This document shows, in pieces, positions 20,055 through 48,989 of a stretch of 64,000 bases of DNA. The stretch is taken from the NCBI RefSeq assembly GCF_030817495.1, contig NZ_JAUSZK010000001.1, positions 2,149,001-2,213,000 of the forward strand, written 5' to 3'. Position numbers and translations under genes: made by a program. Under the pieces are notes generated by a model. It was not told where the DNA came from. It searched no databases and saw only the letters and a list, made by a program, of their open reading frames with translations. Numbering within the stretch: position 1 is the first letter of the stretch; the number at the start of each line of letters is the position of its first letter. This stretch comes from Streptomyces sp. V3I7 (GTDB taxonomy: Bacteria > Actinomycetota > Actinomycetes > Streptomycetales > Streptomycetaceae).

Positions 20055-20453
20055 ATGACTCCTTGGAACCTGCTCGATCTCGACAGCGCCCTGCGTGCCA
20101 GTTGGGCCGCCGACACCTGTTCACCCGATGACCAGGCCGACTGGCAGCCCGGCAACCCGGCCTGGGGGCACTGTGACATCACGGCCTTGGTCGTCAACGA
20201 CGTCTTCGGGGGTGATCTCATGCTTGGTGAAGTGCACCTCGACGGGGTCCAGCACGGCTTCCACTGGTGGAACCAGCTGCCCAGCGGGGTTGAACTCGAC
20301 CTGACGCGCGAGCAGTTCCGGCTCGGACAGGCCATCACCGCCGCCCGTGTCGTCGAGCGGCCGCCGGGTCCTCTGCCGCGCCGCTGGGAGGAGTACCTCC
20401 TTCTGCGTGAGCGCGTCGTCAAGCACCTCGGTCGCCTTCCGGAACCCGTTTGA
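20055..20453 (+). CDS. YunG-like family protein
   Basis: A 132-residue cytoplasmic protein. The signature 'DLDSALRASWAADTCSPDDQ' then 'NPAWGHCDITALVVNDVFGG' and 'HGFHWWNQLPSGVELDLTREQF' matches the YunG family (C-S-P...W-x-x-x-x-P-x-x-G-Q/H-C), small proteins of unknown function with a conserved Cys/His set that hints at a hydrolase-like fold. The ATG at 20055 follows a GCTGGCGGT spacer without a strong ribosome site. Confidence 0.82.
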   Translation: MTPWNLLDLDSALRASWAADTCSPDDQADWQPGNPAWGHCDITALVVNDVFGGDLMLGEVHLDGVQHGFHWWNQLPSGVELDLTREQFRLGQAITAARVVERPPGPLPRRWEEYLLLRERVVKHLGRLPEPV

Positions 20454-20484
20454 GTGGAGGTCCGGGTCGGCCTACGTTTCGTAC

Positions 20485-20850
20485 ATGGCTGACGAGAGCG
20501 AGAGTGCCGTACAAGCGGCCGTCGATGGGGAGTTGCGGCTGCTCGACCCTGAGGTGCGTGCTTCTCCGGCGCTGGTGCTGGAGCTCCTGGATCGGGACTT
20601 CACCGAGATCGGAGCGTCGGGACGCTGGTGGGACGCCGAGTCGATCCTCACGGTGACGAGTGCGGGAACAGTGTCGCCGGAGTCCCCGGTCGAGGTCAGC
20701 CGGATGTAAGGAACGGTCCTTGCTCCGGGCGTCGTTCACTTGACGTACTTCGCCGACAACCAGGGGCGCAGGGTCTGGCGGAGTTCCGTGTGGCGGCTGA
20801 CGGAAGCAGGCTGGCGCCTGTGCTTCCATCAGGGAACCTTGGCCGGCTGA
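20485..20850 (+). pseudogene. DUF4440 / NTF2-like gene with premature TAA
   Basis: The ATG at 20485 opens a frame (MADESESAVQAAVDGELRLL... 'ELLDRDFTEIGASGRWWDAE') that stops at TAA 20707-20709. The same frame then continues without a shift: 'GTVLAPGVVHLTYFADNQGR', 'RVWRSSVWRLTEAGWRLCFH', 'QGTLAG', stop at 20850. The combined 121-residue product is a full-length DUF4440/NTF2-like protein with the expected C-terminal 'RSSVWR..GWRLxFHQGT'. A single nonsense codon therefore splits it. A TAA is unusual at this GC, and a sequencing error should be excluded. Confidence 0.75.
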
Positions 20851-20930
20851 CGAGGAGGCGAGGGGGAGGGGACGTCGTAGACGCCCCCTCTGAAAGGGCT
20901 ACGCCTTGAGCGCCTCGTACGTCACCGTTC

Positions 20931-22559
20931 CTAATCAGTGAGCAGGAGTGAGTCTTGGGCCCATACCTGGTCACTGCGGACATCCCGAACGGTTTTGGGT
21001 GTCCTGGTCGCCCGCGTACTCGCCGCGTCCGGCTGCACGGATCGTGTCCGTGGTCCGGGGATGCGGGGGCGGGTTTCCTCACGCTCAAGGGCTTCCGGTC
21101 CGGCCTGGGCGGTCCGATGCCCGCGACGATCGCTCTGGTCGTTGCGGGGCGGTGCCGTCCGTCGCCGGATCGGGTGTCCTTGGGCGCGTCGCCCGATCGC
21201 GATGCTTGCCGCATCGTGACGGGTCGTCTTACGGGTCTTGCTGGTGAGGGGCTTCTGCCAGTGCTGAGCGCCCCACTTGCTGGTGTAGGCCGGATCGACA
21301 GCGATGATCGCGATACCGGTGGCGTCGGCCATCGACGTCAAGCGAGCGCGGAGCCTGCCGGTGGGCATACCGGAGATGAGCTGCCGGAACTTGCGGCGCC
21401 GGCCGTTCTTCTCCCTGGTCTTCTCGGCCTGGAAGTCGAGGTCTTCGACCGCGATGGCCTTCACGCCGCAGGTCTTGGCCCAGTTCAGAAGCCGGGACAG
21501 GGCGTGGCGGACCTGGGCGTCTCGGTGGTCGGCCGACCCGCTGAGGTCGTAGGAGAAGCGGCGGGGCTGCCCGGTCGGGTTGCCGCAGGTGTCGAGGCGC
21601 CAGGCCGCGAGGTGATCAGCGTTGGTGTCCACACCGATCACACCGTGAGCCAGGGCGGCATCCAGCGGGATGGTCTTCGACGGCGGGATCTGCCAGGAAG
21701 CGGTCAGGTACCAGCGGTCCTTGGCCACGTCCAGGTGGATGCGGTAGGCGACTGCCCGGTTGGCCTCGATGCGGTCGGCCCACTGCGTACCCCGGTGCGG
21801 AAACCGCGCCTTGGCGGCGAGTACGTACCGGCCGTGCTTGGCGTTGGCGTACTCGGCGAGGGGAGCCGGGAGCTTGATGGACACCTCGCCGTCCGGGGCG
21901 ACTCGGATGGTTTCGTTCCCGAAGCGCTTGCCGGACTCGCCGTCGGCCTGGAGGAACCAGCGTTCCGCCTCCCACCGTGTCCGCCACTCGGCCTCGGTGA
22001 GCTGCGCGGCGTCGAGGTTGTGACGGTTGCCCGCAAGGCGCTTGCCGCCCCGCACGACGTGCACGACGCCCTCTTCGCGGTCGGCTCGCTCCCGCTCAAG
22101 GCGTTCTTCGAGGACATGCAGGCGACGGGCCTTGTGGAACCACTCGTTCTTCGAGCGGTACCCGCCTGGAGCCTTCTTGGTGCCCTTCTCCCCGATGGGC
22201 TGGGACAGACGGTGCCGAATCGTCGTGAGACCTGCTTCGAGGCCCTGGACGTGCGCGAGCTGGCAGCGGCGGGACAAGGCCCACTGGTCGTGCGTTGCCT
22301 TTGTGATCGCCCCCGCCCAGCGGGACGACGACTCAGAGGTCAGGCTCTTCTTCCGGGCCGCCCACGTGTCCGTGGAGTGTTCCAGGCCGTCCGCGCATCG
22401 GGCCTTGAGATCGCGGGAGGCAAGCGACCCGAGGTGCGCGCCTACCAGTCGCAGCACCTTCTCGTCGGCGGGTGTCAGGCCCTTGAGGCGGTCGCGAATC
22501 GCCACACCGGATGGCCCGAGGGCAACTAACGGCGCGGCGATCGGGCGGAGGTCAGCCAT
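20931..22559 (-). CDS. tnpB: TnpB-like RuvC nuclease of an IS607-type element (no zinc finger)
   Basis: A 542-residue TnpB relative with an intact RuvC triad: D311 ('IGVDTNADH'), E372 ('IAVEDLDF') and D449 ('RHDAASIAIGRR'). It is longer than ordinary TnpB (~380-420) and lacks the C-x2-C zinc ribbon normally sitting between E and the last D; that place holds 'YTSKWGAQHWQKPLTSKT'. The ATG at 22559 overlaps the tnpA stop (ATGGCTGA). The basic, Pro-rich C-terminal ~90 residues ('RRTAPPRNDQSDRRGHRTAQ' onward) have a composition unlike the core and probably overlap an RNA scaffold. The likely role is as an RNA-guided nuclease that maintains the element. Confidence 0.85.
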   Translation of the reverse strand: MADLRPIAAPLVALGPSGVAIRDRLKGLTPADEKVLRLVGAHLGSLASRDLKARCADGLEHSTDTWAARKKSLTSESSSRWAGAITKATHDQWALSRRCQLAHVQGLEAGLTTIRHRLSQPIGEKGTKKAPGGYRSKNEWFHKARRLHVLEERLERERADREEGVVHVVRGGKRLAGNRHNLDAAQLTEAEWRTRWEAERWFLQADGESGKRFGNETIRVAPDGEVSIKLPAPLAEYANAKHGRYVLAAKARFPHRGTQWADRIEANRAVAYRIHLDVAKDRWYLTASWQIPPSKTIPLDAALAHGVIGVDTNADHLAAWRLDTCGNPTGQPRRFSYDLSGSADHRDAQVRHALSRLLNWAKTCGVKAIAVEDLDFQAEKTREKNGRRRKFRQLISGMPTGRLRARLTSMADATGIAIIAVDPAYTSKWGAQHWQKPLTSKTRKTTRHDAASIAIGRRAQGHPIRRRTAPPRNDQSDRRGHRTAQAGPEALEREETRPRIPGPRTRSVQPDAASTRATRTPKTVRDVRSDQVWAQDSLLLTD

Positions 22560-23151
22560 GTTCGGCGGCCTCCAGCGCCTTGCGGGCGCGGTTCTTCGCC
22601 GACCTGCGCCCGTACAGGCGGGCACAGAACGAGGTCAGCACCTCCACCATGTCCCGCACCAGGTCGTCTTCGACCTCGCCGTCGTCCAGCACCAGCAGCC
22701 GACGGCCCGTCGCGGACAAGGCGGCCTCGACAAGCTCGACGTTCATCCGGCCGAGCCGGTCCTTGTGCTCCACCACCACGCAGGTCACGTTCGGGTCGGC
22801 CAGCAGACGCCGGGCCTTGGAACGGCAGCCGTTCATCCCGGAAGCGATCTCCGCCTCAACACGAACGATTCGGTGACCGGCCTTCGCCGCCCACGCCGAC
22901 AGCCGTGTGACCTGGCGTTCCAGATCGGTCTTCTGATCGTGCGAGGACACCCGGGCATACAGGCCCAGACCACCGATGACCTCGGGCGTGGTGTTCGCGT
23001 CAATGTTCACCAGAATCGTACGCGGCCCGACCCGCTGAGCCGGCACCGGCAATATCCCCTCACGGAACCAGCGATACGCGGTCTGCGGATGCACGCCCTG
23101 CGTCTTCGCCCATTCCGTCAGATTCACGCTCTGACAACGACACTCACTCAT
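22552..23151 (-). CDS. tnpA: IS607-family serine recombinase (transposase)
   Basis: A 199-residue transposase. The N-terminal MerR-like HTH ('NLTEWAKTQGVHPQTAYRWF', residues 10-29) is fused to a resolvase catalytic domain with the nucleophile S69 in 'LYARVSSHDQKTDLERQV', plus 'VVVEHKDRLGRMNVELVEAA' and the C-terminal 'SFCARLYGRRSAKNRARK'. It looks intact. Its stop overlaps the tnpB start by 8 bp, so the two genes are translated as a unit. Confidence 0.93.
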   Translation of the reverse strand: MSECRCQSVNLTEWAKTQGVHPQTAYRWFREGILPVPAQRVGPRTILVNIDANTTPEVIGGLGLYARVSSHDQKTDLERQVTRLSAWAAKAGHRIVRVEAEIASGMNGCRSKARRLLADPNVTCVVVEHKDRLGRMNVELVEAALSATGRRLLVLDDGEVEDDLVRDMVEVLTSFCARLYGRRSAKNRARKALEAAEHG

Positions 23152-23163
23152 ACATGGTTACGC

Positions 23164-24105
23164 TCACTCACCCGACTTCAAGGACCAGCAGGTGGAGACC
23201 CCGGTCAGCCGCTCCGACGCCTCCCAAAGCAGCTTCGACGTCTGGTCGTTGCGCGTCCAGCTCGTCCGCCAGGACAGGGCCGGTGCGCCGCGCCACATCG
23301 CGAAGCTCGGGCCGTAGAAGGAGTCAGGGCCGGCCGCCGGGTCGGTGGCGGCTCGGAGCGTGGGCAGCGCGCCCGCTTCCGCGGACTGGGCGAAGACCCG
23401 GTTGCCGAGCTCCATCAGCTGCTCGGCACGCCTACGCCCCTCCGCCTTCGGACCCGCCGTCTGGAGATTGGTGGCCGCGTAGCCGGGGTGGGCGGCGGTC
23501 GCGGTCACGTCGGCGCCGGTGGCCGCCAGGCGGCGGGCCAGCTCGTGGGTGAAGAGGAGGTTGGCGGTCTTGGAGCGGCCGTAGGAGATCCAACGGCGGT
23601 ACCCGCGCTCGCTGTTGAGGTCGCCGAGGTCGATGTTGGACAGGGCGTGCAGCATGCTCGACACGGTCACGACCCGCGCGCCGGGCACCGCCAGCAGCCT
23701 GGGCAACAGCAGCCCCGTGAGGGCGAAGTGGCCCAGGTGGTTGACGCCGAACTGGGTCTCGAAGCCGTCCGCGGTCGTGCCGTACGGCGGCGCCATCACG
23801 CCCGCGTTGTTGACGAGCAGGTCGAGACGGTCGTACGGGAGGGCCTGCGCGAACTGCCGTACCGACGCGAGGTCCCCGAGGTCCAGCTGCCGGAACTCGG
23901 CCGTGGCGCCCGGCACTTCGGCAGCGAGACGCCCGGCCGCCTCGGCGCCCCGCGCCTCGCTGCGGCAGGCGAGCACCACACGCGCCCCCTTGCGCGCCAG
24001 CTCGCGCGCGGTGACGTACCCGAGCCCGCTGTTGGCCCCGGTGACGACGGCCACCCGGCCGGTCAGATCAGGGATGTCGGTCACGTTCCAGGCCGCACTG
24101 CTCAC
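23164..24105 (-). CDS. Short-chain dehydrogenase/reductase (retinol dehydrogenase-like)
   Basis: A 313-residue NAD(P)-dependent SDR with 'VVTGANSGLG' at residues ~20-29, 'LVNNAGVMAPPYG' (~95) and the catalytic 'YGRSKTANLLF' (~175). The substrate is unknown; the family acts on lipophilic alcohols and aldehydes. The GTG at 24105 (V-SSAAWNVTD) follows AAGGAAGG. Relatives end shortly after 'LWEASERLTGV'; here the last residues 'STCWSLKSGE' come from sequence abutting the IS607 element, whose terminus lies 1-3 bp beyond the stop, so the C-terminus was probably altered by the insertion. Confidence 0.88.
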   Translation of the reverse strand: MSSAAWNVTDIPDLTGRVAVVTGANSGLGYVTARELARKGARVVLACRSEARGAEAAGRLAAEVPGATAEFRQLDLGDLASVRQFAQALPYDRLDLLVNNAGVMAPPYGTTADGFETQFGVNHLGHFALTGLLLPRLLAVPGARVVTVSSMLHALSNIDLGDLNSERGYRRWISYGRSKTANLLFTHELARRLAATGADVTATAAHPGYAATNLQTAGPKAEGRRRAEQLMELGNRVFAQSAEAGALPTLRAATDPAAGPDSFYGPSFAMWRGAPALSWRTSWTRNDQTSKLLWEASERLTGVSTCWSLKSGE

Positions 24106-24170
24106 GAGTCGGTCACCTTCCTTGGCGGGGGCCGGTCGTGCCCGAGCGTACGTGCAGCCGGACATGCGGA

Positions 24171-24205
24171 AAGGGGCGGCACCCCCGCACAGGGTGCCGC
24201 CCCTT
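24171..24205. terminator. Hairpin terminator downstream of ppdK
   Basis: AAGGGGCGGCACCC, a 7-nt loop, then GGGTGCCGCCCCTT: a perfect 14-bp stem. It lies between the ppdK stop (24279) and the upstream side of the SDR gene, and is followed on the minus strand by the SDR promoter region. Confidence 0.88.
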
Positions 24206-24278
24206 CCATCGGGCGCCGGAGCCGGCGTCGATCGGTTGAGGGTCGGGGACCTTCACCGGCTCCGGGTTCAGTGGAGGG

Positions 24279-27026
<2,748 letters not shown>

Positions 27027-27258
27027 GGTTCTCGACTCCTCGAGGACGCGATGGCTGCCCTGACGGCCAGGAACATACCCAGATCGAAGGCGTCTGGGTA
27101 CATCCAGCAGCGCCTCATACGCCCGTAACCAGCCGTCTGCCACAGGATCGAAAGTCAAGGCGCGGAGAGCGCCGGACTCAGACTGTCTTCATTTCTTGAA
27201 CGAATGAGCCCTTCTAGGCCTTCTTTTCGCTCACATGAGCAGCTCTCTCTACGTTTGA

Positions 27259-27273
27259 GTTCAAGTATTGAAC
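27259..27273. promoter_or_regulatory. Palindrome GTTCAA-gta-TTGAAC, possible operator
   Basis: A perfect 6-3-6 inverted repeat in an AT-richer stretch (27180-27275) upstream of ppdK. A related TTGAAC occurs at 27196-27201. It is a candidate protein-binding site or -35-containing promoter for ppdK transcription; which regulator binds is unknown. Confidence 0.4.
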
Positions 27274-27277
27274 GCAC

Positions 27278-27304
27278 AAGGGGTGGCACCCAGTGCCACC
27301 CCTT
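27278..27304. terminator. Hairpin terminator
   Basis: AAGGGGTGGCAC, CCA loop, GTGCCACCCCTT: a perfect 12-bp stem. No intact gene ends here on either strand. It may have belonged to a gene lost from the decayed region to the right. Confidence 0.8.
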
Positions 27305-27539
27305 GGAGAAGTACAGTCGCCGCCGATTCGCTCATCTGAGCGCAACCCTTATCAAGGGTGGCGATAATCACGCTGCCACAGGCGGCCGCTTTTCACCATG
27401 CGGACCGCCCACGGGACTCCGAGCGGGCCGCGCGTGCACGGGGAGCGGGAGCGGGCAGACGTCCTCGAGAGAGGATCGTGCGCACCGCCGTTCGGCTGGA
27501 CCGTCGCCCTCGCGCTGGATCTGCTCCCCGTGCTTCCTG

Positions 27540-28360
27540 GGGCCAGCGGCTGAGGTGCCGGGCGTCCCGGACGAAGAGCCCCTCGGGGTCCGGCGCCCGG
27601 CGCCTGGTGTGGACCCTCGACCTCGAACCGCACGGCACGGCCGAGGTGGTGGTGCGGGTGCTGGCCCGGCCGCACGGCGAGCGGCGGGCCCGGCGCCATC
27701 TGCTCGGCCGACGGCACGCGCGCGAGCGGCCCGGTGATGGCGGCGGGCGCGCAGGGCTACGCCTACGACGCGTTGCGCCGTACGGCATGGCTCGCGCGCA
27801 CCGTCTGGCAGGACCAGTCCTACGCGGCCCTGCTGGAACAGGCGGCCGCCGACCTGCGCGACCGCTTCCAGCGGGACTTCTGGATGCCGGACCTCTCCTT
27901 CCCGGCGCTGGCGCTGGACGGCCACGGCCGCCAGGTCGACGCGCTGGCCTCGGACGCGGGGCATCTGCTGTGGTCGGGGCTGCTGGACAAGGAGTACGGC
28001 GAGGTGGTGGGCCGCCGTCTGCTGGAGCCGGACTTCTTCTCCGGCTGGGGCGTACGTACGCTCGCCTCGGGCCAGCCGGCGTACCACCCGCTCTCGTACC
28101 ACCGGGGCTCGGTCTGGCCGCACGACAACGCTCTGATCGCGCTCGGCCTGTCCCGCTACGGCCTCCACGACGAGGCCCGCGCGGTCGCCCAGGCCCTGGT
28201 CGACGCGGCCGCTACCACCGCCCACCGGCTGCCCGAACTTCTCGCGGGGTACGACCGGACGGCCCATCCGCGACCGGTACCGTTCCCGCACGCCTGCGTC
28301 CGCGAGTCCCGCTCGGCGGCGGCTCCGCTGGCGCTGCTGACGGCGGTGGGCGGCGCGTAG
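27540..28360 (+). pseudogene. Scrambled remnant of a glycogen debranching / amylo-alpha-1,6-glucosidase gene
   Basis: The plus strand from 27734 encodes the C-terminal third of a GH-type debranching enzyme: 'GYAYDALRRTAWLARTVWQD', 'LDGHGRQVDALASDAGHLLW', 'YHPLSYHRGSVWPHDNALIA', with a normal end at 28360. In another plus frame at ~27600-27690 lies 'LVWTLDLEPHGTAEVVVRVL', a mid-domain piece. The N-terminal hallmark 'GLFVRDARHLSRW' is present only on the minus strand at ~27545-27590. Full-length relatives are ~650-720 residues, so most of the gene is deleted and part is inverted. Non-functional. Confidence 0.75.
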
Positions 28361-28513
28361 TACAGGATTGACGACCCGTTTGCCCGGTGTTTGCCGACGG
28401 CCGTGAACAGGGGCCGCCGGCCGGCCGTACGGAAGGACGGCGTGCTCCTGCCTCCCCAGCGTGGCCCGCCACCCATTCCCCCGCTCACGGTCTCGCACGG
28501 AAGGACCCCCGGG

Positions 28514-30328
28514 TTGTCCCAGCACACGAGCACGCGCCAGTCACCGGACACGACCGGGGAGCCGAAGGAAGCCGAGACACAGCCCGCGCAGCCCCGTCCC
28601 CGCCCCCGCCACCGTCCCGGTGAGTGGCGGGTGTGGCGTTTGTGGCGCGGGTGGCGGGGGGCGTGGCGTGTGTGGCAGCAGGCTCACCCCACCGCCGTGC
28701 GCACCGCCTCCGTCACCCTCACCGTCCTCGCGGCCCTCCTCGTCCACGTCTGTCTTGTGCTGCCGAACGTGCCGTCCGGGCTGCGGCCCGCCTCCTTCGT
28801 ACGGCTGCCGGCCGAGGCGATCATGGGGGCCGTCGTCCTGCTCAGCGTGCCGCGCCGGGCGCGGGTGGCGGTGTCGGCGACGGCGGGGGCGCTGCTGGGC
28901 CTCGTCGCCGTGGTGAACCTGTTCGACCTGGGCTTCAACGAGTTCCTCGGCCGGGGCTTCAACGTCATCCTGGACTGGAGCCTGCTCGACGACGCCCGCG
29001 GGTATCTCCGGGACACCTTCGGGGGCCCCGCCGAGGCCGGCATCACGATCGGCGCGGTGCTGCTGATCGTCCTGGTGATCGCGCTCGTCTCGCTGGCCAC
29101 CGTGCGGCTGTCCGCCCTGCTGGCCGCGCACCGGGCCCGGGCCTCGCGCGGCGCGCTGATCGTGGGCACCGTGTGGATCGCCTGCACCGCGCTCGGGCTC
29201 CAGGTCGCCGGGGTCCCGCTCGCCTCGGAGCACACCGCCACCGTTCTGAAGGCCCAGGCGCGGCAGATGCGGGACACGCTGCGGGACGAGGCGGCGTTCG
29301 CGAAGACGGCGCGGGTGGACGCGTTCGCGAACACGCCGGGCTCCGAGCTGGTGCCGGGCCTGCGTGGCAAGGACATGATCTTCACGTTCATCGAGAGCTA
29401 CGGCCGTACCGCCATCGAGGACCCGGTCATCGCGCCCGGCGTCGACCGGACGCTGGACCGGAGCAACCGGGCGCTGGCCAGGGCCGGTTACCACGCGAAG
29501 AGCGGCTGGCTGACGTCGGCGACGTACGGCGGCGGCAGCTGGCTCGGCCACTCCACGACGATGTCCGGCCTGTGGGTCAGCAGCCAGCAGCGCTACCGCA
29601 CGGTCATGGCGGGCGACCACCTCAGCCTCACCAAGATGTTCAGGAAGACCGGCGCCTGGGACACGGTGGGTGTCATGCCGGGCGTGCAGAAGGCGTGGCC
29701 CGAGCAGAAGTTCTACGGCCTCGACAAGGTCTACAACGCCTTCCAACTGGGGTACAAGGGGCCGAAGTTCAGCTGGTCGACGATGCCGGACCAGTACGCC
29801 CTCGAACAGTTCCAGAAGCGGGTGCACGGCAAGAAGCGCACCGACGGCAAGCAGCTGATGTCGTTGGTCATCCTGACCTCCAGCCACCAGCCGTGGGCGC
29901 CGATTCCGAAGATGGTGGGCTGGGACCGGCTCGGCGACGGCTCGGTCTTCAAGGGCATCGAAGCGGCGGGCAACGACCCGGCCGACGTGATCGCGGACAC
30001 GGCCAAGTCCCGTCAGGAGTACGGCAAGTCGGTGCAGTACTCGGTCACCGCGCTGGCCCAGTGGCTGGAGCGCTACGGCACGAACGACACGGTGCTCGTC
30101 GTCCTCGGCGACCACCAGCCCATCGCCCGCGTCAGCGGCAACCACTCCGGCTTCGACGTGCCGATCTCGATCGTCGCGAAGGACCCGAAGGTACTGGACA
30201 AGATCGCAAGCTGGAACTGGACGAACGGCCTGCGCCCCGCCCACAACGCCCCGGTCTGGCGCATGGACGCCTTCCGCAACCGCTTCCTCACGGCCTACGG
30301 CTCGACCCCCCACCCAAAGAAGGACTGA
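28514..30328 (+). CDS. Sulfatase-like hydrolase/transferase (LTA synthase-type membrane protein)
   Basis: A 604-residue protein with an N-terminal Pro/Arg-rich cytoplasmic tail, about four or five membrane helices (residues ~60-245) and a C-terminal extracellular alkaline-phosphatase-fold domain. The latter shows 'DMIFTFIESYGRTAIEDPVI', 'TSATYGGGSWLGHSTTMSG' (nucleophile Ser/Thr region), 'VILTSSHQPWAPIPK' and the metal-site 'VVLGDHQPIARVSG'. It resembles LtaS/MdoB phosphoglycerol-transferase-type sulfatases. The start is uncertain: TTG at 28514 has GGAAGGA upstream; the frame is open to 28391. It could modify cell-envelope glycopolymers. Confidence 0.82.
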   Translation: MSQHTSTRQSPDTTGEPKEAETQPAQPRPRPRHRPGEWRVWRLWRGWRGAWRVWQQAHPTAVRTASVTLTVLAALLVHVCLVLPNVPSGLRPASFVRLPAEAIMGAVVLLSVPRRARVAVSATAGALLGLVAVVNLFDLGFNEFLGRGFNVILDWSLLDDARGYLRDTFGGPAEAGITIGAVLLIVLVIALVSLATVRLSALLAAHRARASRGALIVGTVWIACTALGLQVAGVPLASEHTATVLKAQARQMRDTLRDEAAFAKTARVDAFANTPGSELVPGLRGKDMIFTFIESYGRTAIEDPVIAPGVDRTLDRSNRALARAGYHAKSGWLTSATYGGGSWLGHSTTMSGLWVSSQQRYRTVMAGDHLSLTKMFRKTGAWDTVGVMPGVQKAWPEQKFYGLDKVYNAFQLGYKGPKFSWSTMPDQYALEQFQKRVHGKKRTDGKQLMSLVILTSSHQPWAPIPKMVGWDRLGDGSVFKGIEAAGNDPADVIADTAKSRQEYGKSVQYSVTALAQWLERYGTNDTVLVVLGDHQPIARVSGNHSGFDVPISIVAKDPKVLDKIASWNWTNGLRPAHNAPVWRMDAFRNRFLTAYGSTPHPKKD

Positions 30329-30487
30329 CGCCCCGCCACCGTCCCACCGGGCTGGCGGCCTGGCCCACCGAACGCGGCTACCCGCCGACCACCACGCCAC
30401 GGCGCCGCCGGGTCTCCAGACCCCTGAACCGCGGGGCCGCCGACCGGACCACCGGGCGGCTGGACCGCTGGACCGCCAGACCGCCGC

Positions 30488-30830
30488 GCCCCTGTGCCGC
30501 CGCACCGCCAGGCCGCCGGGCGGGGCCGGTACTGGGCCACTGGACCGCCAGGCCGCCAGGCAGGGCCGGCGCTGGACCACCGCACCGCCAGGCCGCCAGA
30601 CGGGGCCGGTACTGGGCCACCGCACCGCCAGGCCGCCAGGCAGGGCCGGTACTGGGCCACCGGGCCGCCGGACGGGGCCGGCGCTGGACCACCGCACCGC
30701 CAGGCCGCCAGACGGGGCCGGTACTGGGCCACCGCACCGCCAGGCCGCCGGGCGGGACTGGTACTGGGCCACCGCACCGCCAGGCCGCCGGGCGGGGCCG
30801 GTACTGGGCCACTGGACCACCGGGCCGCTC
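30488..30830. repeat. 40-bp GC-rich minisatellite (~9 imperfect units)
   Basis: Imperfect head-to-tail units of about 40 bp, each built around CACCGCACCGCCAGGCCGCC followed by a (C/G)GG..GGGGCCGGTACTGGGC half. Units alternate between GTACTGGGCC and GCGCTGGACC variants, and one unit is shortened. It lies in the 700-bp gene-free region between the sulfatase and dusB. All frames stay open on the minus strand, but the products are simple Pro/Gly/Arg repeats without a ribosome site. Confidence 0.9.
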
Positions 30831-31002
30831 GGCCAGGGGCGAGCCGCCGAAGGCGGCGGCCTCCTGGCCCGCTCGGGTCCCGAGCACCGAAAGGTGCTCC
30901 GCCCGGGCTCACGGGGGGTCCGGGGGGAGCGGAAAGGTGCCCTCCCACCGGGACCCGCGGGGTCCGGGGCGGAGCCCCGGGGGTGGGTGACCTCTCGGCC
31001 TG

Positions 31003-31027
31003 CCGAGTCGGGCGGGTGGGTGGGCGA
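31003..31027. repeat. Dispersed 3'-flank repeat (copy beside dusB)
   Basis: CCGAGTCGGGCGGGTGGGTG plus GGCGA. The same 25-bp sequence occurs at 56349-56373 and, with one base different, at 56440-56462, and its GGTGGGTGGGCG end is part of the glyS terminator (39591-39602). Each copy sits immediately 3' of a minus-strand gene stop (dusB here). Confidence 0.85.
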
Positions 31028-31036
31028 AAAATCCGC

Positions 31037-32179
31037 TCAACCGCCGGAGGTATCCAGTTCCGCTTCCTCCCCCACGCCCGCACAGTCGTACGGATCCTTC
31101 AGCCAGCCGTCCGGCAGCACCACGCGGTTGTTGCCGGACGTACGCCCGCGGGGGCCGTCCGCGCCGTCGGGCCAGGGCTGGTCGAGGTCCAGCTCGTCGA
31201 GGCCGGCGCGCAGCTCCCCCAGCGAGGAGGTGATCGCGAGCCGCTTGCGCATCTCGGAGCCGACCGCGAAGCCCTTCAGGTACCAGGCGACGTGCTTGCG
31301 GAAGTCGATGACGCCCTTGGACTCGTCGCCGATCCACTCGCCGAGCAGCGTGGCGTGCCGGACCATCGCGTCGGCGACCTCGCGCAGCGCCGGGCGGGCG
31401 AGGTCCTGCGTACGGCCCTCGAAGGCGGCGACCAGGTCCTGGAACAGCCACGGCCGCCCGAGGCACCCGCGGCCGACGACCACACCGTCGCACCCGGCCT
31501 CGCGCACCATCCGCAGCGCGTCCTCGGCCGACCAGATGTCGCCGTTGCCCAGGACCGGGATCTCCGGCACATGCTCCTTGAGGCGCGCGATCGCGTCCCA
31601 GTCCGCCGTGCCTCCGTAGTGCTGGGCGGTCGTGCGGCCGTGCAGCGCGATGGCGCTCACGCCCTCCTCGACGGCGATGCGGCCGGCGTCGAGGTAGGTG
31701 ATGTGGTCGTCGTCGATGCCCTTGCGCATCTTCATGGTCACCGGCAGGTCGCCGGCCCCGCTGACGGCCTCGCGCAGGATCGCCCGCAGCAGGTGGCGCT
31801 TGTACGGGAGCGCGGAACCGCCGCCCTTCCTGGTGACCTTCGGGACCGGGCAGCCGAAGTTCAGGTCGATGTGGTCGGCGAGGTCCTCCTCCGCGATCAT
31901 GCGGACGGCCTTGCCGACGGTCGCCGGGTCCACGCCGTACAGCTGGATCGAGCGCGGCTTCTCCGTCGCGTCGAAGTGGATCAGCTGCATGGTCTTCTCG
32001 TTGCGCTCGACCAGCGCCCGGGTCGTGATCATCTCGCTCACGAACAGGCCCTTGCCGCCGCTGAACTCCCGGCACAGGGTGCGGAAGGGCGCGTTGGTGA
32101 TACCGGCCATGGGGGCCAGCACGACGGGCGGCTGGACGGTGTGCGGACCGATCTGGAGGGGGGACACGGGCGTGGACAT
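31037..32179 (-). CDS. dusB: tRNA-dihydrouridine synthase
   Basis: A 380-residue FMN-dependent enzyme reducing uridines in the tRNA D-loop. It shows the TIM-barrel start 'PPVVLAPMAGITNAPFRTLC', the catalytic cysteine C110 in 'DLNFGCPVPKVTRKGGGSAL', 'IALHGRTTAQHYGGTADWD', the FMN phosphate loop 'IPVLGNGDIWSAEDALRMV' and 'VVVGRGCLGRPWLF'. It starts at the ATG at 32179. The C-terminal tail after ~340 is variable and acidic, as in other actinobacterial members. It is divergent from the MFS gene. Confidence 0.95.
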   Translation of the reverse strand: MSTPVSPLQIGPHTVQPPVVLAPMAGITNAPFRTLCREFSGGKGLFVSEMITTRALVERNEKTMQLIHFDATEKPRSIQLYGVDPATVGKAVRMIAEEDLADHIDLNFGCPVPKVTRKGGGSALPYKRHLLRAILREAVSGAGDLPVTMKMRKGIDDDHITYLDAGRIAVEEGVSAIALHGRTTAQHYGGTADWDAIARLKEHVPEIPVLGNGDIWSAEDALRMVREAGCDGVVVGRGCLGRPWLFQDLVAAFEGRTQDLARPALREVADAMVRHATLLGEWIGDESKGVIDFRKHVAWYLKGFAVGSEMRKRLAITSSLGELRAGLDELDLDQPWPDGADGPRGRTSGNNRVVLPDGWLKDPYDCAGVGEEAELDTSGG

Positions 32180-32250
32180 TCCCCCATTGTCGCGTATCGA
32201 GGCGGAGGGGCGTGACCCCGGTGGTTAGTTAGGCGCACTATTGAATGTCG

Positions 32251-32256
32251 TACGAT
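32251..32256 (+). promoter_or_regulatory. Candidate -10 box (TACGAT) for a leaderless MFS mRNA
   Basis: TACGAT lies six bases before the ATG of MPELSHRRR at 32263, the spacing expected when transcription starts at the A of the start codon. No Shine-Dalgarno is present before either ATG. The -35 region is weak (TTAGGC-like). This is position-based inference only. Confidence 0.35.
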
Positions 32257-32262
32257 GGGGTC

Positions 32263-33732
32263 ATGCCCGAGTTGAGTCATCGTCGACGCCTGCTCGTGCT
32301 CGCGATCTGCTGCTCCAGCCTGCTGATCGTGAGTCTCGACAACACCGCGCTGAACGTGGCGCTGCCCTCGATGCAGCGCGAACTGCACGCCACGACGTCG
32401 GGCCTGCAGTGGACGATCGACGCCTACACGCTGGTACTGGCCTCGCTGCTGATGCTCGCGGGCTCGACGGCCGACCGGATCGGCCGCAAGAAGGTCTTCA
32501 TGACCGGCCTGGCGACGTTCACCGCCGGTTCCCTGCTGTGCTCGCTCGCGCCGAACCTGGAGCTGTTGATCGTCTTCCGGATGGTCCAGGCGGTCGGCGG
32601 CTCGATGCTCAACCCGGTCGCCATGTCGATCATCACCAACACCTTCACCGACGCCCGCGAGCGGGCGCGCGCGATCGGCATGTGGGGCGCCGTGATCGGC
32701 ATATCCATGGCCGCCGGCCCGCTGGTCGGCGGCCTGCTGGTGGACTCGGTGGGCTGGCGCGCGATCTTCTGGGTCAACCTGCCCGTCGGCCTCGCGGCTC
32801 TGCTGCTCACCCTGCGCCTCGTCCCCGAGTCCCGCGCCCCGAAGGCCCGCCGCCCCGACCCCGTCGGCCAGCTGCTGGTGATCACCCTGTTCGGCTCGCT
32901 GACGTACGCGATCATCGAGGCGCCGGCCTCCGCCGCCTCCTCGGTCCTGCCGTTCGCCGCGCTCGCCGCGGCCGCCCTGCTCGCCCTGCTGTGGTACGAG
33001 CCGCGCCGCGACGAACCCCTCATCGACCTGCGCTTCTTCCGTTCGGTGCCGTTCAGCGGGGCGACGGTGATCGCGATCAGCGCGTTCGCGGCGCTGGGCG
33101 GCTTCCTCTTCATGTCGACGCTGTACCTGCAGAACGTACGGGGCCTGAGCGCGCTGCACGCCGGGCTGTGGATGCTGCCGATGGCCGTACCGACGTTCCT
33201 GTGCGCGCCGCTGTCCGGACGGCTGGTGGGGGCGCGGGGCCCGCGGCCTTCCCTGCTGCTGGCCGGTGCCGCGATGACGGCCAGCGCCGTGCTGTTCGCG
33301 GTCTTCGGGGTGGAGACCTCGAACGTCACACTGTTCGCCGCCTACCTGCTGTTCGGCATCGGCTTCGGCTTCGTCAACGCGCCCATCACGAACACGGCGG
33401 TCTCCGGCATGCCGCGCGCCCAGGCGGGCGTCGCCGCCGCCGTCGCCTCCACCAGCCGTCAGCTCGGCCAGACGCTCGGCGTCGCGGTGGTCGGCGCCGT
33501 CCTCGCGTCGGGCGTGGGGGCGTCGTCGTACCGGCAGGCCTTCGTGTCGGCGTCGCTCCCCGGCTGGTGGATCCTCACCGGCTGCGGACTCGCGGTGCTC
33601 GGCCTGGGCGCGCTGACGAGCGGCCGCCGGGCGCGCGCGAGCGCCGAGCGCACGGCCGAGCGGCTTCGGACGGCCGAGGTGAGCGAGGCCGCGGGGGTTG
33701 TGAGCTGCTGCGATGTAACCGTGCACAAGTGA
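32263..33732 (+). CDS. MFS drug-export pump (DHA2, 14-TM type)
   Basis: A 489-residue efflux protein with about 14 hydrophobic helices. It has the motif 'DNTALNVALPSMQRELHATT' in helix 1, motif A 'GSTADRIGRKKVFMTGLA' (residues ~70-87) and antiporter motif C-like 'GMWGAVIGISMAAGPLVGG'. It starts at the ATG at 32263 or at 32245, 6 codons earlier; neither has a ribosome site. The C-terminal ~10 residues ('VVSCCDVTVHK') are encoded by the left terminus of the second IS607-type copy (from 33715), so the native C-terminus has been replaced. Confidence 0.9.
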   Translation: MPELSHRRRLLVLAICCSSLLIVSLDNTALNVALPSMQRELHATTSGLQWTIDAYTLVLASLLMLAGSTADRIGRKKVFMTGLATFTAGSLLCSLAPNLELLIVFRMVQAVGGSMLNPVAMSIITNTFTDARERARAIGMWGAVIGISMAAGPLVGGLLVDSVGWRAIFWVNLPVGLAALLLTLRLVPESRAPKARRPDPVGQLLVITLFGSLTYAIIEAPASAASSVLPFAALAAAALLALLWYEPRRDEPLIDLRFFRSVPFSGATVIAISAFAALGGFLFMSTLYLQNVRGLSALHAGLWMLPMAVPTFLCAPLSGRLVGARGPRPSLLLAGAAMTASAVLFAVFGVETSNVTLFAAYLLFGIGFGFVNAPITNTAVSGMPRAQAGVAAAVASTSRQLGQTLGVAVVGAVLASGVGASSYRQAFVSASLPGWWILTGCGLAVLGLGALTSGRRARASAERTAERLRTAEVSEAAGVVSCCDVTVHK

Positions 33733-35520
33733 GTTCTGGTGTGCGGGAGCGAGTGCCCGGGCCCGGTGCGTGCCTCTCCTCGCCTATGGAACGGGGGGTT
33801 TGTCTGTCGAATGGGTGACCTTTGCGGGTGGTGGTCGTTGGGTGGGGTGGCGGGTTGCTTGGGGGCGGGTGGGGAGGGTGGGTGCCGGTGGGCGGGCTGC
33901 GGGAGCTGGCGGCGCCGTTCGTGGTGCCCGGTCCTTCCGGTGTTGCGGTCCGTGACCGGCTCAAGCACCTGAGCGCGGGGGACGAGGAGGTGCTGCGGCT
34001 GGTCGGTGACCATCTCGGTGGGCTTGCCTCCCGCGATCTGAAGGCCCGGTGTGCGGCCGGGCCGGACCACGACAGCGATGCGTGGGCGGAGCGCAAGCGT
34101 GTGCTTACCGGGGAGTCGTCGTCGCGGTGGGCGGGTTCGATCACGAAGGCCACGCACGATCAGTGGGGTCTGGCCCGGCGTGCCCAGCTCGCGCACGTGC
34201 AGGGGCTGGAGGCGGGGGTGCGCACGATCGAGCACCGGCTGTCCCTGCCGCTCGGACAGAAGGGCGGCAAGGGGGCGCCGGGCGGCTACCGTTCCCGGCG
34301 GGAGTGGTTCGCCAAGTCCCGCCGCCTGCATGTCCTCGAGGACCGGCTGCGGGCGGCGCGCGCCGACTGGCGGGCCGGTGTCGTGCACGTGGTGCGCGGC
34401 GGGAAACGGCTGCTGCACACCCGCCACCACCTCGATGCGGCGGGGCTCACGGAGCCGCGGTGGCGAGAGCGGTGGGAGGCCGCGCGCCGGTTCCTGGCCG
34501 CGGACGGCGAGTCCGGGAAGCGGTACGGCAACGAGACCATCCGCGTCACCCCGGACGGTGAGGTGAGCCTCAAACTCCCCGCACCGCTCGCCCACCTGGC
34601 GAACGCCCCGCACGGCCGGTACGTGCTGGCCGCCCGCGTGGCGTTCGCGCACCGGGGCGAGCAGTGCCGCGACCGCGTGAGCGCGAACCGGGCCGTCGCC
34701 TACCGCATCCACCAAGACCCGGTGCGTGGCCGCTGGTACCTCACCGCCTCCTGGACGATCTCTCCGGCGACGACCGTCCTCCTGGCAGCCGCCCGCGCGA
34801 ACGGGCTGATCGGTGTGGACACCAACGCCGATCACCTCGCCGCCTGGCGCCTGGACACCCACGGCAACCCGGTCGGCCGGCCACACCGGTTCGACTATGA
34901 CCTGTCCGGCACCACCGCCCACCGTGACGCCCAGGTCCGCCACGCCCTGATCCGGCTGCTGCACTGGGCCAAACGCCACCATCTCGCGATCGCGGTCGAG
35001 GACCTGGACTTCACCGCGGACAAGACCCGCGAGAAGCACGGCAGGCGCAAGAAGTTCCGCCACCTCATCTCCGGCCTGCCCGTGGCAAGGCTGCGCGCCC
35101 GGCTGGTCAGCATGGCGGCCGAACTCGACATCCCCCTGATCGCCGTCGACCCCGCCTACACCTCCCGATGGGGCGCCCAGCACTGGCAGAAACCCCTCAC
35201 CGGCAAGAACAGGAAACCCAGCCGTCACGATGCCGCGAGCATCGCGACCGGCAGGCGCGCCCTGGGGCACCCGATCCGGCGACGGACGACACCGCCCCGC
35301 ACCCACCAGAGCGATGGGTACGGGCATCGGACCGTCCAGGCCGGAGCAGGCACCCCAGGGCGTGAGGAACCCCGCCCCCGCATTCCCGGACCACGCACCA
35401 GATGCGTGCAGCCGGACGCGGCGAGAACGCGGGCGACCAGGACACCCAAAACCGTTCGGGATATCCGCAGCGACCAGGTATGGGCCCAAGACCCACTCCT
35501 GCTCACTGAATAGGAACGGT
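33715..35520 (+). mobile_element. IS607-type element, second copy lacking tnpA
   Basis: The left terminus GTAACCGTG..AGTGAGT (33715) and the right terminus TAGGAACGGT (ends 35520) match the ends of the complete copy at 20924-23162. Between them is only the TnpB-like gene; the serine recombinase gene is missing, so it could move only with help in trans. The left 170 bp are G-rich and degenerate. It inserted into the 3' end of the MFS gene; the right end lies 6 bp from the esterase stop. Confidence 0.8.
33888..35513 (+). CDS. tnpB: TnpB-like RuvC nuclease (second copy, no zinc finger)
   Basis: A 541-residue protein collinear with the copy at 20931-22559 but clearly diverged through its length ('RDRLKHLSAGDEEVLRLVGD' vs 'RDRLKGLTPADEKVLRLVGA'). 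The RuvC residues are retained ('IGVDTNADH', 'IAVEDLDF', 'RHDAASIATGRR'), and the zinc ribbon is again absent. The GTG at 33888 aligns with the start of the other copy; the frame is open upstream through glycine-rich sequence. No disrupting stop or shift is seen, so the nuclease looks intact although its transposase is lost. Confidence 0.83.
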   Translation: MGGLRELAAPFVVPGPSGVAVRDRLKHLSAGDEEVLRLVGDHLGGLASRDLKARCAAGPDHDSDAWAERKRVLTGESSSRWAGSITKATHDQWGLARRAQLAHVQGLEAGVRTIEHRLSLPLGQKGGKGAPGGYRSRREWFAKSRRLHVLEDRLRAARADWRAGVVHVVRGGKRLLHTRHHLDAAGLTEPRWRERWEAARRFLAADGESGKRYGNETIRVTPDGEVSLKLPAPLAHLANAPHGRYVLAARVAFAHRGEQCRDRVSANRAVAYRIHQDPVRGRWYLTASWTISPATTVLLAAARANGLIGVDTNADHLAAWRLDTHGNPVGRPHRFDYDLSGTTAHRDAQVRHALIRLLHWAKRHHLAIAVEDLDFTADKTREKHGRRKKFRHLISGLPVARLRARLVSMAAELDIPLIAVDPAYTSRWGAQHWQKPLTGKNRKPSRHDAASIATGRRALGHPIRRRTTPPRTHQSDGYGHRTVQAGAGTPGREEPRPRIPGPRTRCVQPDAARTRATRTPKTVRDIRSDQVWAQDPLLLTE

Positions 35521-35525
35521 CTCAG

Positions 35526-36599
35526 TCAGTCACGGCTGAGCGCGGTATCGCTGTCGCTCAGGGCCGCACGCAGCGCGTCGGCCGCCTCGGCCGTGGCCTC
35601 GCGGAAGAGGTCCCCGATGCCGAGGAAGTTGGCGTAGCCGTGGATCAGGTCCGGCCGACGGCTGAGGACGACCTTCACGCCGGCCTCGGTGAGCGCCTCG
35701 GCGTAGGCCTCGCCCTCGTCGCGCAGCGGGTCGAAGCCCGCGGTGGCGATGTAGGCGGGCGGCAGTCCGGCGAGGTCGTCGGCGAGCAGCGGGGAGATGC
35801 GCGGATCAGCGCGGTCCACGCCTGCGGGGGCGTAGTGGTCGGCGAACCAGTCCATCTGCTCGCTGGTGAGGAAGAACCGGTCGGCGAACAGCTCGCGTGA
35901 CCGCCGGTGCCGCGAGGCGTCGGTGGCCGGGTAGAGCAGCAGCTGGAACGCGGGCGCCGGGCCGCCGCGCGCGGTGGCGAGCTGGGCGGTCACGGCGGCG
36001 AGGTTGCCGCCCGCGCTGTCGCCGCCGACGGCGATCCGCTCCGGGTCGGCCCCGAGCTCGGCCGCATGGGCGTGGACGTGGTCGAAGGCGGCCAGCGCGT
36101 CGTCGACGGCCGCCGGGAAGACGTGCTCGGGGGCCAGCCGGTACTCCACCGACAGCACCCGTACGCCGGCCTGCCGGGCGAGGAAGCGTGCGGTGTTGTC
36201 GTGGCTGACCCGACTGCCGAGCACCCAGCCGCCGCCGTGCAGGAACACCAGCAGCCCGGACGGCGCCGTGAGTCCCTCGGGCGTGTACAGCGTGGCGGGC
36301 AGCTCGCCGTGCTCCGCCGGAACGACGATCTCCCGTGCGGTCACCGGCTCGATCACGGGCCCGCTCACGATGTGCCGGCCCAGCTCCAGCAGCGTGCGGG
36401 AGGTCTCCACCTGGTCGCCGACGACCAGTCTGGTCCCGGCGGCGCGCATCAGCCGGAGCAGCAACTGCGCGTCCAGGGCGAGTTCCTGGCCGTCCCGCCG
36501 GACCGGCGCTCCGGCGATGAGCCGCCGTAGCGGGCGGGGCAGTGCGAACGCCGCGCGGACGGCGGCCGCTTGGACGCGGACGGGAAGCGGAATCGTCAT
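35526..36599 (-). CDS. Alpha/beta-hydrolase esterase (hormone-sensitive lipase family)
   Basis: A 357-residue esterase with the HSL signature 'LHGGGWVLG' (residues 120-128, oxyanion hole) and the nucleophile S195 in 'VGGDSAGGNLAAV'. The catalytic Asp lies in 'IATAGFDPLRDEGEAYAEAL' and the His in 'RPDLIHGYANFLG'. The ATG at 36599 follows GAGAGG. The substrates are probably short-chain esters. It converges with the IS copy, whose end lies 5 bp from the stop codon; the C-terminus seems complete. Confidence 0.93.
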   Translation of the reverse strand: MTIPLPVRVQAAAVRAAFALPRPLRRLIAGAPVRRDGQELALDAQLLLRLMRAAGTRLVVGDQVETSRTLLELGRHIVSGPVIEPVTAREIVVPAEHGELPATLYTPEGLTAPSGLLVFLHGGGWVLGSRVSHDNTARFLARQAGVRVLSVEYRLAPEHVFPAAVDDALAAFDHVHAHAAELGADPERIAVGGDSAGGNLAAVTAQLATARGGPAPAFQLLLYPATDASRHRRSRELFADRFFLTSEQMDWFADHYAPAGVDRADPRISPLLADDLAGLPPAYIATAGFDPLRDEGEAYAEALTEAGVKVVLSRRPDLIHGYANFLGIGDLFREATAEAADALRAALSDSDTALSRD

Positions 36600-47816: not shown

Positions 47817-48989
47817 CTAGGCGAGGAGCGCGAGGGCAGGGGCCTGCGACTCGGCCCCGCGGACCCATTTCGACCAGCCGCGCTGGCTGATGTTGTGGGA
47901 CGCGTTCAGGTCGGCGTGCTCAACGAAGCCGCAGACTCTGCAGGTGAAGGTGGCCTGGTCGGGCCGGTTCTTTCGGTCGGTGTGGTGGCACTGGGAGCAT
48001 TCCTGGCTGGTGTACGCCGGGTTGACGTACACCACGGGGACCCCTGCGTGTTGGGCCTTGTAGCCGATGAAGGTGCCCAGCTGGTGGAAGGACCAGGAGT
48101 GCAACGTGACGCGTTGGGGCTTTCTCAGCCGTACCCGCTCGCGAATGCCCGTGAGGTCCTCCAGGGCGATGCCGCGTCCGGTGCGTTGTGCCGCCGCCAC
48201 GATGGCCTTGCTGATCTTGTGGTTGATGTCGCGGGTCCTCCGCTTCTCCTTGCCCGCGTGCTTCTTCGCCCGCCGCTTGGCGGACTTGGTGCCCTTCCTC
48301 TGGAGCTTGCCGCGCAGCTTGCGGTCGGTTTCCCGGCGGCGGTTCGTCTTCCGTCCGCTGTGGCGGGTGCCGTCGGTGGTGGAGGCGATATTCACGATGC
48401 CCAGATCCACCCCGAGAAAGCCGACCGGGTGGGTGTTCAGCCCGGCCTCGGCGATCTCGCACGTGGCCAGCAGATACCACTGCCCGCCCTGGTAGAGCAG
48501 GTCGGACTCGCCCTGTCGGTGCGCGGCCACCACGGTGAGCTGCGCGGCCTGGCCGGTGAATCCCACACCCTTCAGGCGCCCGGCGGTCGTCCAGATCGAG
48601 ACCGTGCGCTGCTCGTGCTGCCAGGACAGCATCCGATCGTCAAACGGCTGGGCCGCATCCTTACGGAAGGCAAGCGGCTTGCCCGCCGCCCTGGCGTACC
48701 GCTTGGTGCCCGGCCGTCCGTAGTTCCCGGCCTTCAGGTTGGCCCGCAGCGTGGTGTAGGCGTCGGCGGTCTTCTTGATGGAGTGCTGGGCGGCCTGCGC
48801 ACCCAACCCCCACCGCTCCTTGACCTCCTGGTAACACCGTTCGCGCAGCGCCCGGTTGGAGGTGGCCTTGGCCTCGAAGCCGGTGGCCGACACCCAGGAG
48901 GCCGCCTCGTTGCACGCGCGCAGGGACGCCTCAAGTGCCGCCGCCTGCACGGGCGTCGGCAGAAGCTTGATGCGCACCACCAGTTTCAT
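47817..48989 (-). CDS. tnpB: TnpB RNA-guided nuclease of the IS200/IS605 element
   Basis: A 390-residue canonical TnpB: N-terminal 'MKLVVRIKLLPTPVQAAALE', RuvC D195 ('GVDLGIVN'), E277 ('IALEDLTG'), the zinc ribbon 'CSQCHHTDRKNRPDQ' to 'CRVCGF', and the last aspartate in 'EHADLNASHN'. The ATG at 48989 fits the family start. The 3' flank (47817 down to 47726) would encode the end of its omega RNA. Confidence 0.93.
   Translation of the reverse strand: MKLVVRIKLLPTPVQAAALEASLRACNEAASWVSATGFEAKATSNRALRERCYQEVKERWGLGAQAAQHSIKKTADAYTTLRANLKAGNYGRPGTKRYARAAGKPLAFRKDAAQPFDDRMLSWQHEQRTVSIWTTAGRLKGVGFTGQAAQLTVVAAHRQGESDLLYQGGQWYLLATCEIAEAGLNTHPVGFLGVDLGIVNIASTTDGTRHSGRKTNRRRETDRKLRGKLQRKGTKSAKRRAKKHAGKEKRRTRDINHKISKAIVAAAQRTGRGIALEDLTGIRERVRLRKPQRVTLHSWSFHQLGTFIGYKAQHAGVPVVYVNPAYTSQECSQCHHTDRKNRPDQATFTCRVCGFVEHADLNASHNISQRGWSKWVRGAESQAPALALLA

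What the first reader, a model, noticed from the sequence alone, without database searches (positions are those of the whole stretch)
20924..35520. Two IS607-type elements with a large zinc-finger-less TnpB whose last ~100 bp are hyper-conserved: candidate guide-RNA scaffold
Seen: the right-terminal 100 bp of the two copies (20924-21023 on the minus strand and 35421-35520 on the plus strand) differ at about 5 positions by hand count, while a mid-gene stretch around the RuvC aspartate is only about 80% identical. The conserved block covers the tnpB 3' end and runs to the element end, where TnpB systems encode their omega/reRNA. Both proteins keep D/E/D but lack the C-x2-C zinc ribbon and are ~540 residues. 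Inference: a distinct TnpB branch under RNA-level constraint, with guides reading into the flanks just outside TAGGAACGGT.
Basis: partly seen in the sequence, partly recalled or inferred. Interest (0 to 1): 0.8.

Follow-up and report, generated by a model that had tools for sequence, protein, structure and literature searches.

The report
Streptomyces TnpB guide-RNA scaffold
The right ends of two Streptomyces jumping genes very probably encode a roughly 245-nucleotide guide-RNA scaffold for an unusual TnpB protein, and related genomes also carry tiny jumping elements that seem to hold only this scaffold.

Summary
In detail: the two right-terminal 100 bp differ at 5 positions, other 100-nt windows of tnpB are 70-85% identical. 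Corrections: copy A has tnpA+tnpB (2,279 bp), copy B is tnpB-only (1,827 bp), and the constrained block is ~245 nt. Across 63 copies it covaries as RNA (280 double-changed cells, 91 in shuffles). Two subclades read the same DNA in different frames; AlphaFold leaves the tail it encodes unstructured. A covariance model finds it in 9 of 9 held-out loci and, weakly, in 11 of 18 loci of ~50%-identical TnpBs. Loop ACCGTTC complements the terminal GAACGGT, like known TnpB pseudoknots. The protein has a Cas12f/TnpB fold without zinc ribbon; 'D/E/D' is half right: D333, E393 and H469 are invariant, residue 470 is H, D, E or Q. Followed outward, the model exposed ~365-bp elements with the same right end and RNA but no tnpA or tnpB, in at least 22 of 199 genomes of the genus. 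Transcription and cleavage were not testable. Verdict: a new variant of the TnpB/omegaRNA kind.

The parts
20924..23202 (-). Copy A: IS607-type element with tnpA and tnpB, 2,279 bp from the first G of the left GGGGT to the T of the right GGAACGGT
   Evidence: ends from comparison of copies; unoccupied site in related SDR genes
22552..23151 (-). tnpA, IS607 serine-recombinase transposase (199 aa)
   Evidence: NCBIfam NF033518, 188 bits, cut-off 110
20931..22559 (-). tnpB of copy A, 542 aa if it starts at the ATG that overlaps the tnpA end (the open frame begins at 22625)
   Evidence: start inferred
20924..21165 (-). predicted omegaRNA/reRNA scaffold of copy A; the guide would be read from 20923 downward
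   Evidence: covariance model R1, 264 bits (this copy is in the model's alignment)
33694..35520 (+). Copy B: tnpB-only element of the same family, 1,827 bp, no tnpA
   Evidence: left end shared with L002, L003 and others
33822..35513 (+). tnpB of copy B (open frame 563 aa; likely start near 33882, 543 aa)
   Evidence: AF2 model confident for most of residues 31-490 (loop 391-420 lower), pLDDT <50 for 496-563
35279..35520 (+). predicted omegaRNA/reRNA scaffold of copy B; the guide would start at 35521
   Evidence: covariance model R1, 248 bits (this copy is in the model's alignment)
35296..35324 (+). P1: CCCCnnnnnA-CCRGAGYGA-TnnnnnGGGG hairpin inside the tnpB frame, the strongest covariation
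   Evidence: six of 10 pairs with changes on both sides
35440..35466 (+). P7: hairpin near the right end whose loop holds ACCGTTC (35451-35457)
   Evidence: four of 8 pairs with changes on both sides; seen again in 11 right ends of ~50%-identical TnpBs
35514..35520 (+). GAACGGT, complementary to ACCGTTC at 35451-35457: proposed pseudoknot directly before the guide
   Evidence: 98% of cells paired but no covariation, since nearly invariant

Best explanation
The hyper-conserved right end is the 3' part of a ~245-nt guide-RNA scaffold (omegaRNA/reRNA) that overlaps the last ~75-80 codons of tnpB and ends at the element boundary GGAACGGT. The RNA would be cut from the 3' part of tnpB mRNA that reads through the right end; the ACCGTTC loop of P7 pairs with the terminal GAACGGT, and the next ~20 nt of host DNA become the guide. 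TnpB, a Cas12f-like protein without zinc ribbon, would carry this RNA to copies of the empty site, which reads (G/A)GGGT-target, and cut there, so that repair from the occupied copy keeps the element. Catalysis most likely uses D333-E393-H469 instead of D-E-D. Shown computationally: RNA covariation, frame switching, element ends, unoccupied sites, predicted protein fold, invariant residues. Inferred: transcription, processing, TAM, cleavage, the role of His469.
Confidence: 0.87

Rival explanations
1. The block is a DNA element: a long right end recognised by the TnpA transposase, conserved because it must be bound for transposition.
For: The last bases are shared by tnpB-bearing and solo copies alike, as a transposase end must be. 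Right-end recognition surely accounts for part of the terminal conservation.
Against: Paired columns change together in P1, helix 6 and P7; DNA binding does not explain compensatory changes in hairpins. P1 lies 196-224 nt from the end.
Confidence: 0.07
2. The TnpB is nuclease-inactive and uses the RNA only to bind DNA (repressor or Cas12m-like roadblock).
For: Residue 470 is not conserved (H 47, D 42, E 17, Q 3 of 109) and the zinc ribbon is gone; Cas12m with non-canonical RuvC residues, and some with D-E-D, bind only (passages).
Against: D333, N335, E393 and H469 are 109 of 109; an abandoned active site would be expected to lose the first Asp and the Glu too. His is a working third residue in Deinococcus-Thermus RuvC, if less active.
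Confidence: 0.3
3. Ordinary amino-acid conservation of a functional C-terminal domain explains the DNA identity.
For: The tnpB frame stays open to a TAG inside the terminal TAGGAACGGT in 63 of 84 copies.
Against: Two frames for the same DNA, a disordered prediction, third positions nearly as conserved as the others, 13 of 84 copies open past the end, and solo elements without the gene.
Confidence: 0.03

Closest known systems
IS607 TnpB with reRNA, e.g. ISXfa1 (PMC10711439, section list and Results part 1 of 3 read)
   Same: serine-recombinase TnpA partner (copy A), fixed nucleotides next to the right end included in the scaffold, loop-to-3'-end pseudoknot
   Different: zinc ribbon absent, RuvC-III His instead of Asp, ~245-nt conserved scaffold against ~150 nt for ISXfa1, GGGT target motif inferred here
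RAGATH-18-guided IS607 TnpBs (PMC11061315, abstract and section list only)
   Same: IS607 TnpB with a structured RNA at the right end
   Different: no Rfam match in window 20600-36000 at E<=1; protein ~540 aa against an average of 390
TnpB clades with RuvC-III rearrangement such as RIII-r4 (PMC10278001, section 13 and passages read)
   Same: altered RuvC-III motif; proteins of 353-550 aa and omegaRNAs of 79-466 nt were surveyed there
   Different: I could not tell whether this Streptomyces clade is RIII-r4 or was among the 59 tested; no supplement was read
Cas12f1 (PDB 9i8y, 7wju)
   Different: no zinc-ribbon motif, transposon ends instead of CRISPR (array not searched)

Membership tests
TnpB (IS200/IS605/IS607 RNA-guided nuclease family, broad sense) | TnpB/Cas12 fold with split RuvC | tested here: met
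TnpB (IS200/IS605/IS607 RNA-guided nuclease family, broad sense) | catalytic Asp in RuvC-I and Glu in RuvC-II | tested here: met
   D333 and E393 in 109 of 109, 240 of 240
TnpB (IS200/IS605/IS607 RNA-guided nuclease family, broad sense) | structured RNA at the right end, running to the element boundary | tested here: met
   sequence evidence only; expression not testable
TnpB (IS200/IS605/IS607 RNA-guided nuclease family, broad sense) | RNA-guided DNA cleavage next to a TAM | not testable with these tools
   target motif (G/A)GGGT inferred from left ends and empty sites only
Typical/derived TnpB subclades (DED triad plus zinc ribbon) | RuvC-III Asp of the DRDxN/NADxN motif | tested here: not met
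   motif mostly reads [RG]H[DHEQ]; H469 invariant, 470 variable. The window proteins are therefore not filed in these subclades
Typical/derived TnpB subclades (DED triad plus zinc ribbon) | zinc ribbon between RuvC-II and RuvC-III | tested here: not met
   TSxxCxxC in 0 of 360 listed homologues; 12 of 240 have a CxxC elsewhere
NCBIfam NF040570 guided_TnpB | score over the curated cut-off of 100 bits | tested here: not met
   46.9 (copy A) and 39 bits (copy B)
IS607 insertion sequences (copy A) | IS607 serine-recombinase TnpA | tested here: met
   NF033518, 188 bits, cut-off 110
IS607 insertion sequences (copy B) | own tnpA | tested here: not met
   MFS gene lies directly left of the element; 59 of 77 loci with enough upstream sequence likewise show no TnpA match
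RAGATH-18 RNA | match to the Rfam model | tested here: not met
   no Rfam match at E<=1 in window 20600-36000; in six solo loci and L132 a single hit, sRNA Scr2736 at E 0.29 below its gathering score
TldR (nuclease-dead TnpB regulators) | ruined active site and loss of transposon ends (definition recalled) | tested here: not met
   Asp and Glu invariant; ends sharp and multi-copy
Cas12m-like DNA binders | association with a CRISPR array | not tested
   no array search made

The most novel reading that the evidence does not exclude
Streptomyces carries an old lineage of ~365-bp mobile elements that consist of transposon ends plus a guide-RNA scaffold and no protein gene: guide-RNA parasites. 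They would be moved by an IS607 TnpA and retained by a TnpB, both made by other elements in the cell, each copy programming the borrowed TnpB with its own flank as guide. The TnpB itself would be an RNA-guided nuclease with a D-E-H active site and no zinc ribbon.
Probability: 0.5. Interest if true: 0.78.

Novelty: new variant of a known kind. Interest (0 to 1): 0.62.

Why it matters
It turns a by-eye oddity into a defined, searchable RNA (model R1) for a very large TnpB group (5,547 homologues of copy B among 7,996 scored candidates, candidates capped), whose listed members are mostly named TnpB-related, transposase or hypothetical. The proposed D-E-H site and the missing zinc ribbon make it a good test of how much of the TnpB machinery is dispensable for cutting. 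The solo elements make a natural experiment on whether RNA-guided retention alone can sustain a parasite that encodes no protein.

Tried and rejected
Rejected: D443 (VDPAY) as an alternative catalytic residue, because canonical TnpB and Cas12f can carry an Asp there too. Rejected: GGAACGGT at 20708-20715, near copy A, as an excision scar; it reads as G-T-V codons of a frame that I take, from memory and no call, for a DUF4440-like gene. RNAalifold's pairing of A1 columns 16-19 with the last four bases was set aside for the P7-loop pseudoknot by judgement; both are near-invariant and covariation cannot choose. In group 2 RNAalifold likewise pairs the terminal GGAACGG with an upstream CTGTTCC. 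Rfam: nothing at the right ends. hmmsearch with the A3 profile found none of the canonical TnpBs among the frames of 28 loci; only profile-profile comparison did. The tree of 98 RNAs leaves groups 1 and 2 non-monophyletic and was rooted at the midpoint; only the solo clade (support 1.0) is used from it, and since most solo loci were found by similarity to one of them (L230), part of that unity is built in and other solo lineages would be missed. My motif search for left ends misplaced some (L045, L096, L099, L103, L128); the tally includes them.

Rows dropped: 9 of 93 copies without a motif-found right end; 84 reduced to 68 at 95% identity, then L011, L051, L067, L128 and L131 left out and L083 re-cut, giving the 63 of A1. 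In one search three of 84 (L005, L011, L083) had no frame anchor. Group 2: 11 of 13 right ends found were aligned (L140, L176 left out). Solo: a right end was found in 30 of 34 loci; 24 of the 30 were aligned (A5). Negative controls for R1: 15 of the 20 canonical loci fetched. In one search only 3 candidates per genome were scored, so copy numbers are lower bounds. One search required His in its motif, so its 115 of 120 is no independent proof of His invariance. R1 was calibrated on little sequence, so E-values are rough. Structural families not listed by VIA are not excluded.

No claim is made that solo elements are unpublished: the searches (open-licence papers, ranked lists cut short, for example 20 of 1,253 papers) showed no title or abstract start that described them. 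I recall, without a call, standalone omegaRNAs for IscB and gene-less PATE elements for IS605.

Full report
WHAT IS THERE. The window lies in a 6.55-Mb genome. The genus is Streptomyces by inference: genome G074, of the same genus, holds on a contig of 8,706,292 bases the protein that names from Streptomyces sp. NBC_00335, and 79 of the 80 named relatives are Streptomyces. Copy A (window 20924-23202, minus strand) is an IS607-type element with tnpA (NF033518, 188 bits, cut-off 110) and tnpB. Copy B (33694-35520, plus strand) carries tnpB alone; an MFS gene sits directly to its left. The genome holds five nearly full tnpB copies (one, L005, with an internal TGA), one truncated copy, one deletion derivative that keeps tnpA and the last 42 codons, and a fragment of a ~50%-identical relative that also ends TAGGAACGGT.

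THE OBSERVATION. The last 100 nt of the two copies differ at 5 positions, and the other 100-nt windows of the gene are 70-85% identical. Third-codon-position identity is 0.57-0.68 over most of the gene, 0.84 in 35271-35400 and 0.92 in 35401-35513. In 79 family members third positions of the upstream gene are at 0.65-0.80 consensus frequency; in the right-end block most 30-nt steps from 35281 on are at 0.81-0.93, but 35461-35490 is only 0.63, and one upstream step (35161-35190) also reaches 0.86. Both window copies belong to subclade 1a. Between subclades 1a and 1b (28 and 35 of 63) the last ~53 columns are 62% identical, against 87-89% within each, so the striking 5-in-100 figure partly reflects kinship; the RNA case rests on the following.

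RNA, NOT PROTEIN. (1) In 63 right ends (A1), my 44-pair structure, taken from RNAalifold plus a pseudoknot, pairs in 97.5% of cells; 17 pairs and 280 cells show changes on both sides against 12.6 and 91.2 in shuffles (0 of 500 reach either), and no slid version passes 43.3%. The strongest helices are P1 (six of ten pairs with double changes) and P7 (four of eight). (2) The two subclades read frames one base apart over about 90 nt...PDAARTRATRTPKTVRD... against ...AGRGANAGNQDAQHRSG..., while their DNA is 79% identical there. (3) AlphaFold2 is confident for most of residues 31-490 and below 50 for 496-563, the part that the block encodes. (4) The tnpB stop is the TAG of TAGGAACGGT in 63 of 84 copies; 13 are open past the end.

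REACH OF THE RNA. The covariance model R1 recovers 9 of 9 group-1 loci that were not used to build it (171-263 bits), 11 of 18 loci of group 2 (TnpBs of ~50% identity) at E<=0.02, four of them only over part of the model, the single group-3 locus at 30.5 bits, and none of 15 canonical TnpB loci better than E 0.024. Group 2 by itself shows P7 with covariation and a P1-like hairpin with loop ACCRG(A/C)GGAT (11 sequences). The P7 loop ACCGTTC is complementary to the terminal GAACGGT in both groups; one group-2 copy has GAATGGT, which still pairs by G-U. A loop-to-3'-end pseudoknot is needed for activity in ISXfa1 TnpB (PMC10711439, Results part 1 read).

ENDS AND TARGET. Left ends read (G/A)GGGT followed by, for example, TGTGAACTGCTG (tnpB-only) or CTTCACCTGCTG (with tnpA); 41 of 48 called left ends are GGGGT or AGGGT (a few of them misplaced). 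For copy A, 13 related SDR genes without the element were read; five contain GGGGTGACGTAC across the junction. So the element sits in GGGGT, GGT is shared by both junctions, and the sequence right of it would be the guide target.

SOLO ELEMENTS. Searching 61 genomes of the genus with R1 gave strong hits with no tnpB beside them. Nine such loci (L229-L237, one in the window's own genome near C1:4628948-4629267) are alike over only 285-377 nt in pairwise BLAST, stop at GGAA(C/T)GGT, and in five of nine show the left end GGGTTGGC of tnpB-only elements; a TnpB profile finds nothing in their frames. In 199 genomes of the genus, 22 hold a match over at least 300 of the 365 nt; 20 of these 22 also have a tnpB of this superfamily, against 45 of the other 177 (Fisher p 2.6e-9, not corrected for phylogeny and counting fragments as tnpB). 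Twenty-four solo RNAs keep the fold (97.9% of cells paired; 57 double-changed cells against 18.5; 14 such pairs against 8.8, reached by 1 of 500 shuffles). Their longest closed frames are 57-104 aa; I did not compare these between elements. They form one clade with support 1.0 among 98 RNAs, with the selection caveat given under Tried and rejected. For L232, six of nine related loci read have GGTCA at the point where the element's right flank (CACAGG after GGT) would join. I read them as non-autonomous elements that carry only the guide-RNA scaffold and depend on TnpA and TnpB in trans. That dependence is inferred.

VERDICT. The finding is real and broader than stated in its core (a predicted omegaRNA of ~245 nt), and wrong in two details (copy B, D/E/D). 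It is a new variant of a known kind. The most interesting consequence, the solo scaffold elements, lies outside the window. What I saw of each paper is stated where it is cited; no supplement was read.

Noticed in passing
L229-L237, L245-L267; own genome near C1:4628948-4629267 (outside the window): ~365-bp solo elements with the family's right end and RNA but no tnpA or tnpB.
   Followed up: yes
window 33788-33850 and the same place in other tnpB-only copies: Conserved leader left of tnpB, roughly GGGAACGGnAGTTC...TCGAATGYGTGACCTT (a regex for parts of it matches 52 of 79 loci); its GGAACGG could pair with the ACCGTTC loop, a possible autoregulatory switch.
   Followed up: partly
window 47880-48974 (-): A TnpB over the NCBIfam guided_TnpB cut-off (192 bits) also lies in the window.
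   Followed up: no
window 20450-20850 (+): A frame that I take for a DUF4440-like gene (no family search made) has an in-frame TAA at 20707-20709, about 200 bp from copy A's right end.
   Followed up: no
L047 (A1) and L245 (A5); L240; L267: The same palindromic insert GGGGGTACCTCCCAGCGGTAGCTGGGGG sits at the same point, before P7, of a tnpB-linked and of a solo RNA; L240 has a similar one. L240 and L267 share another insert with ATCAGCGGCCTCCGGCCGCGGG.
   Followed up: no
L002: Both flanks of this copy carry GGTTCCCGTCGT, a 12-nt direct repeat.
   Followed up: no
L080 (4618, 4730) and L123 (4618, 4953): L080: the bases right of the element recur 112 nt on after another GGAACGGT. L123: two right ends 335 bp apart, perhaps a nested or tandem copy.
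   Followed up: no
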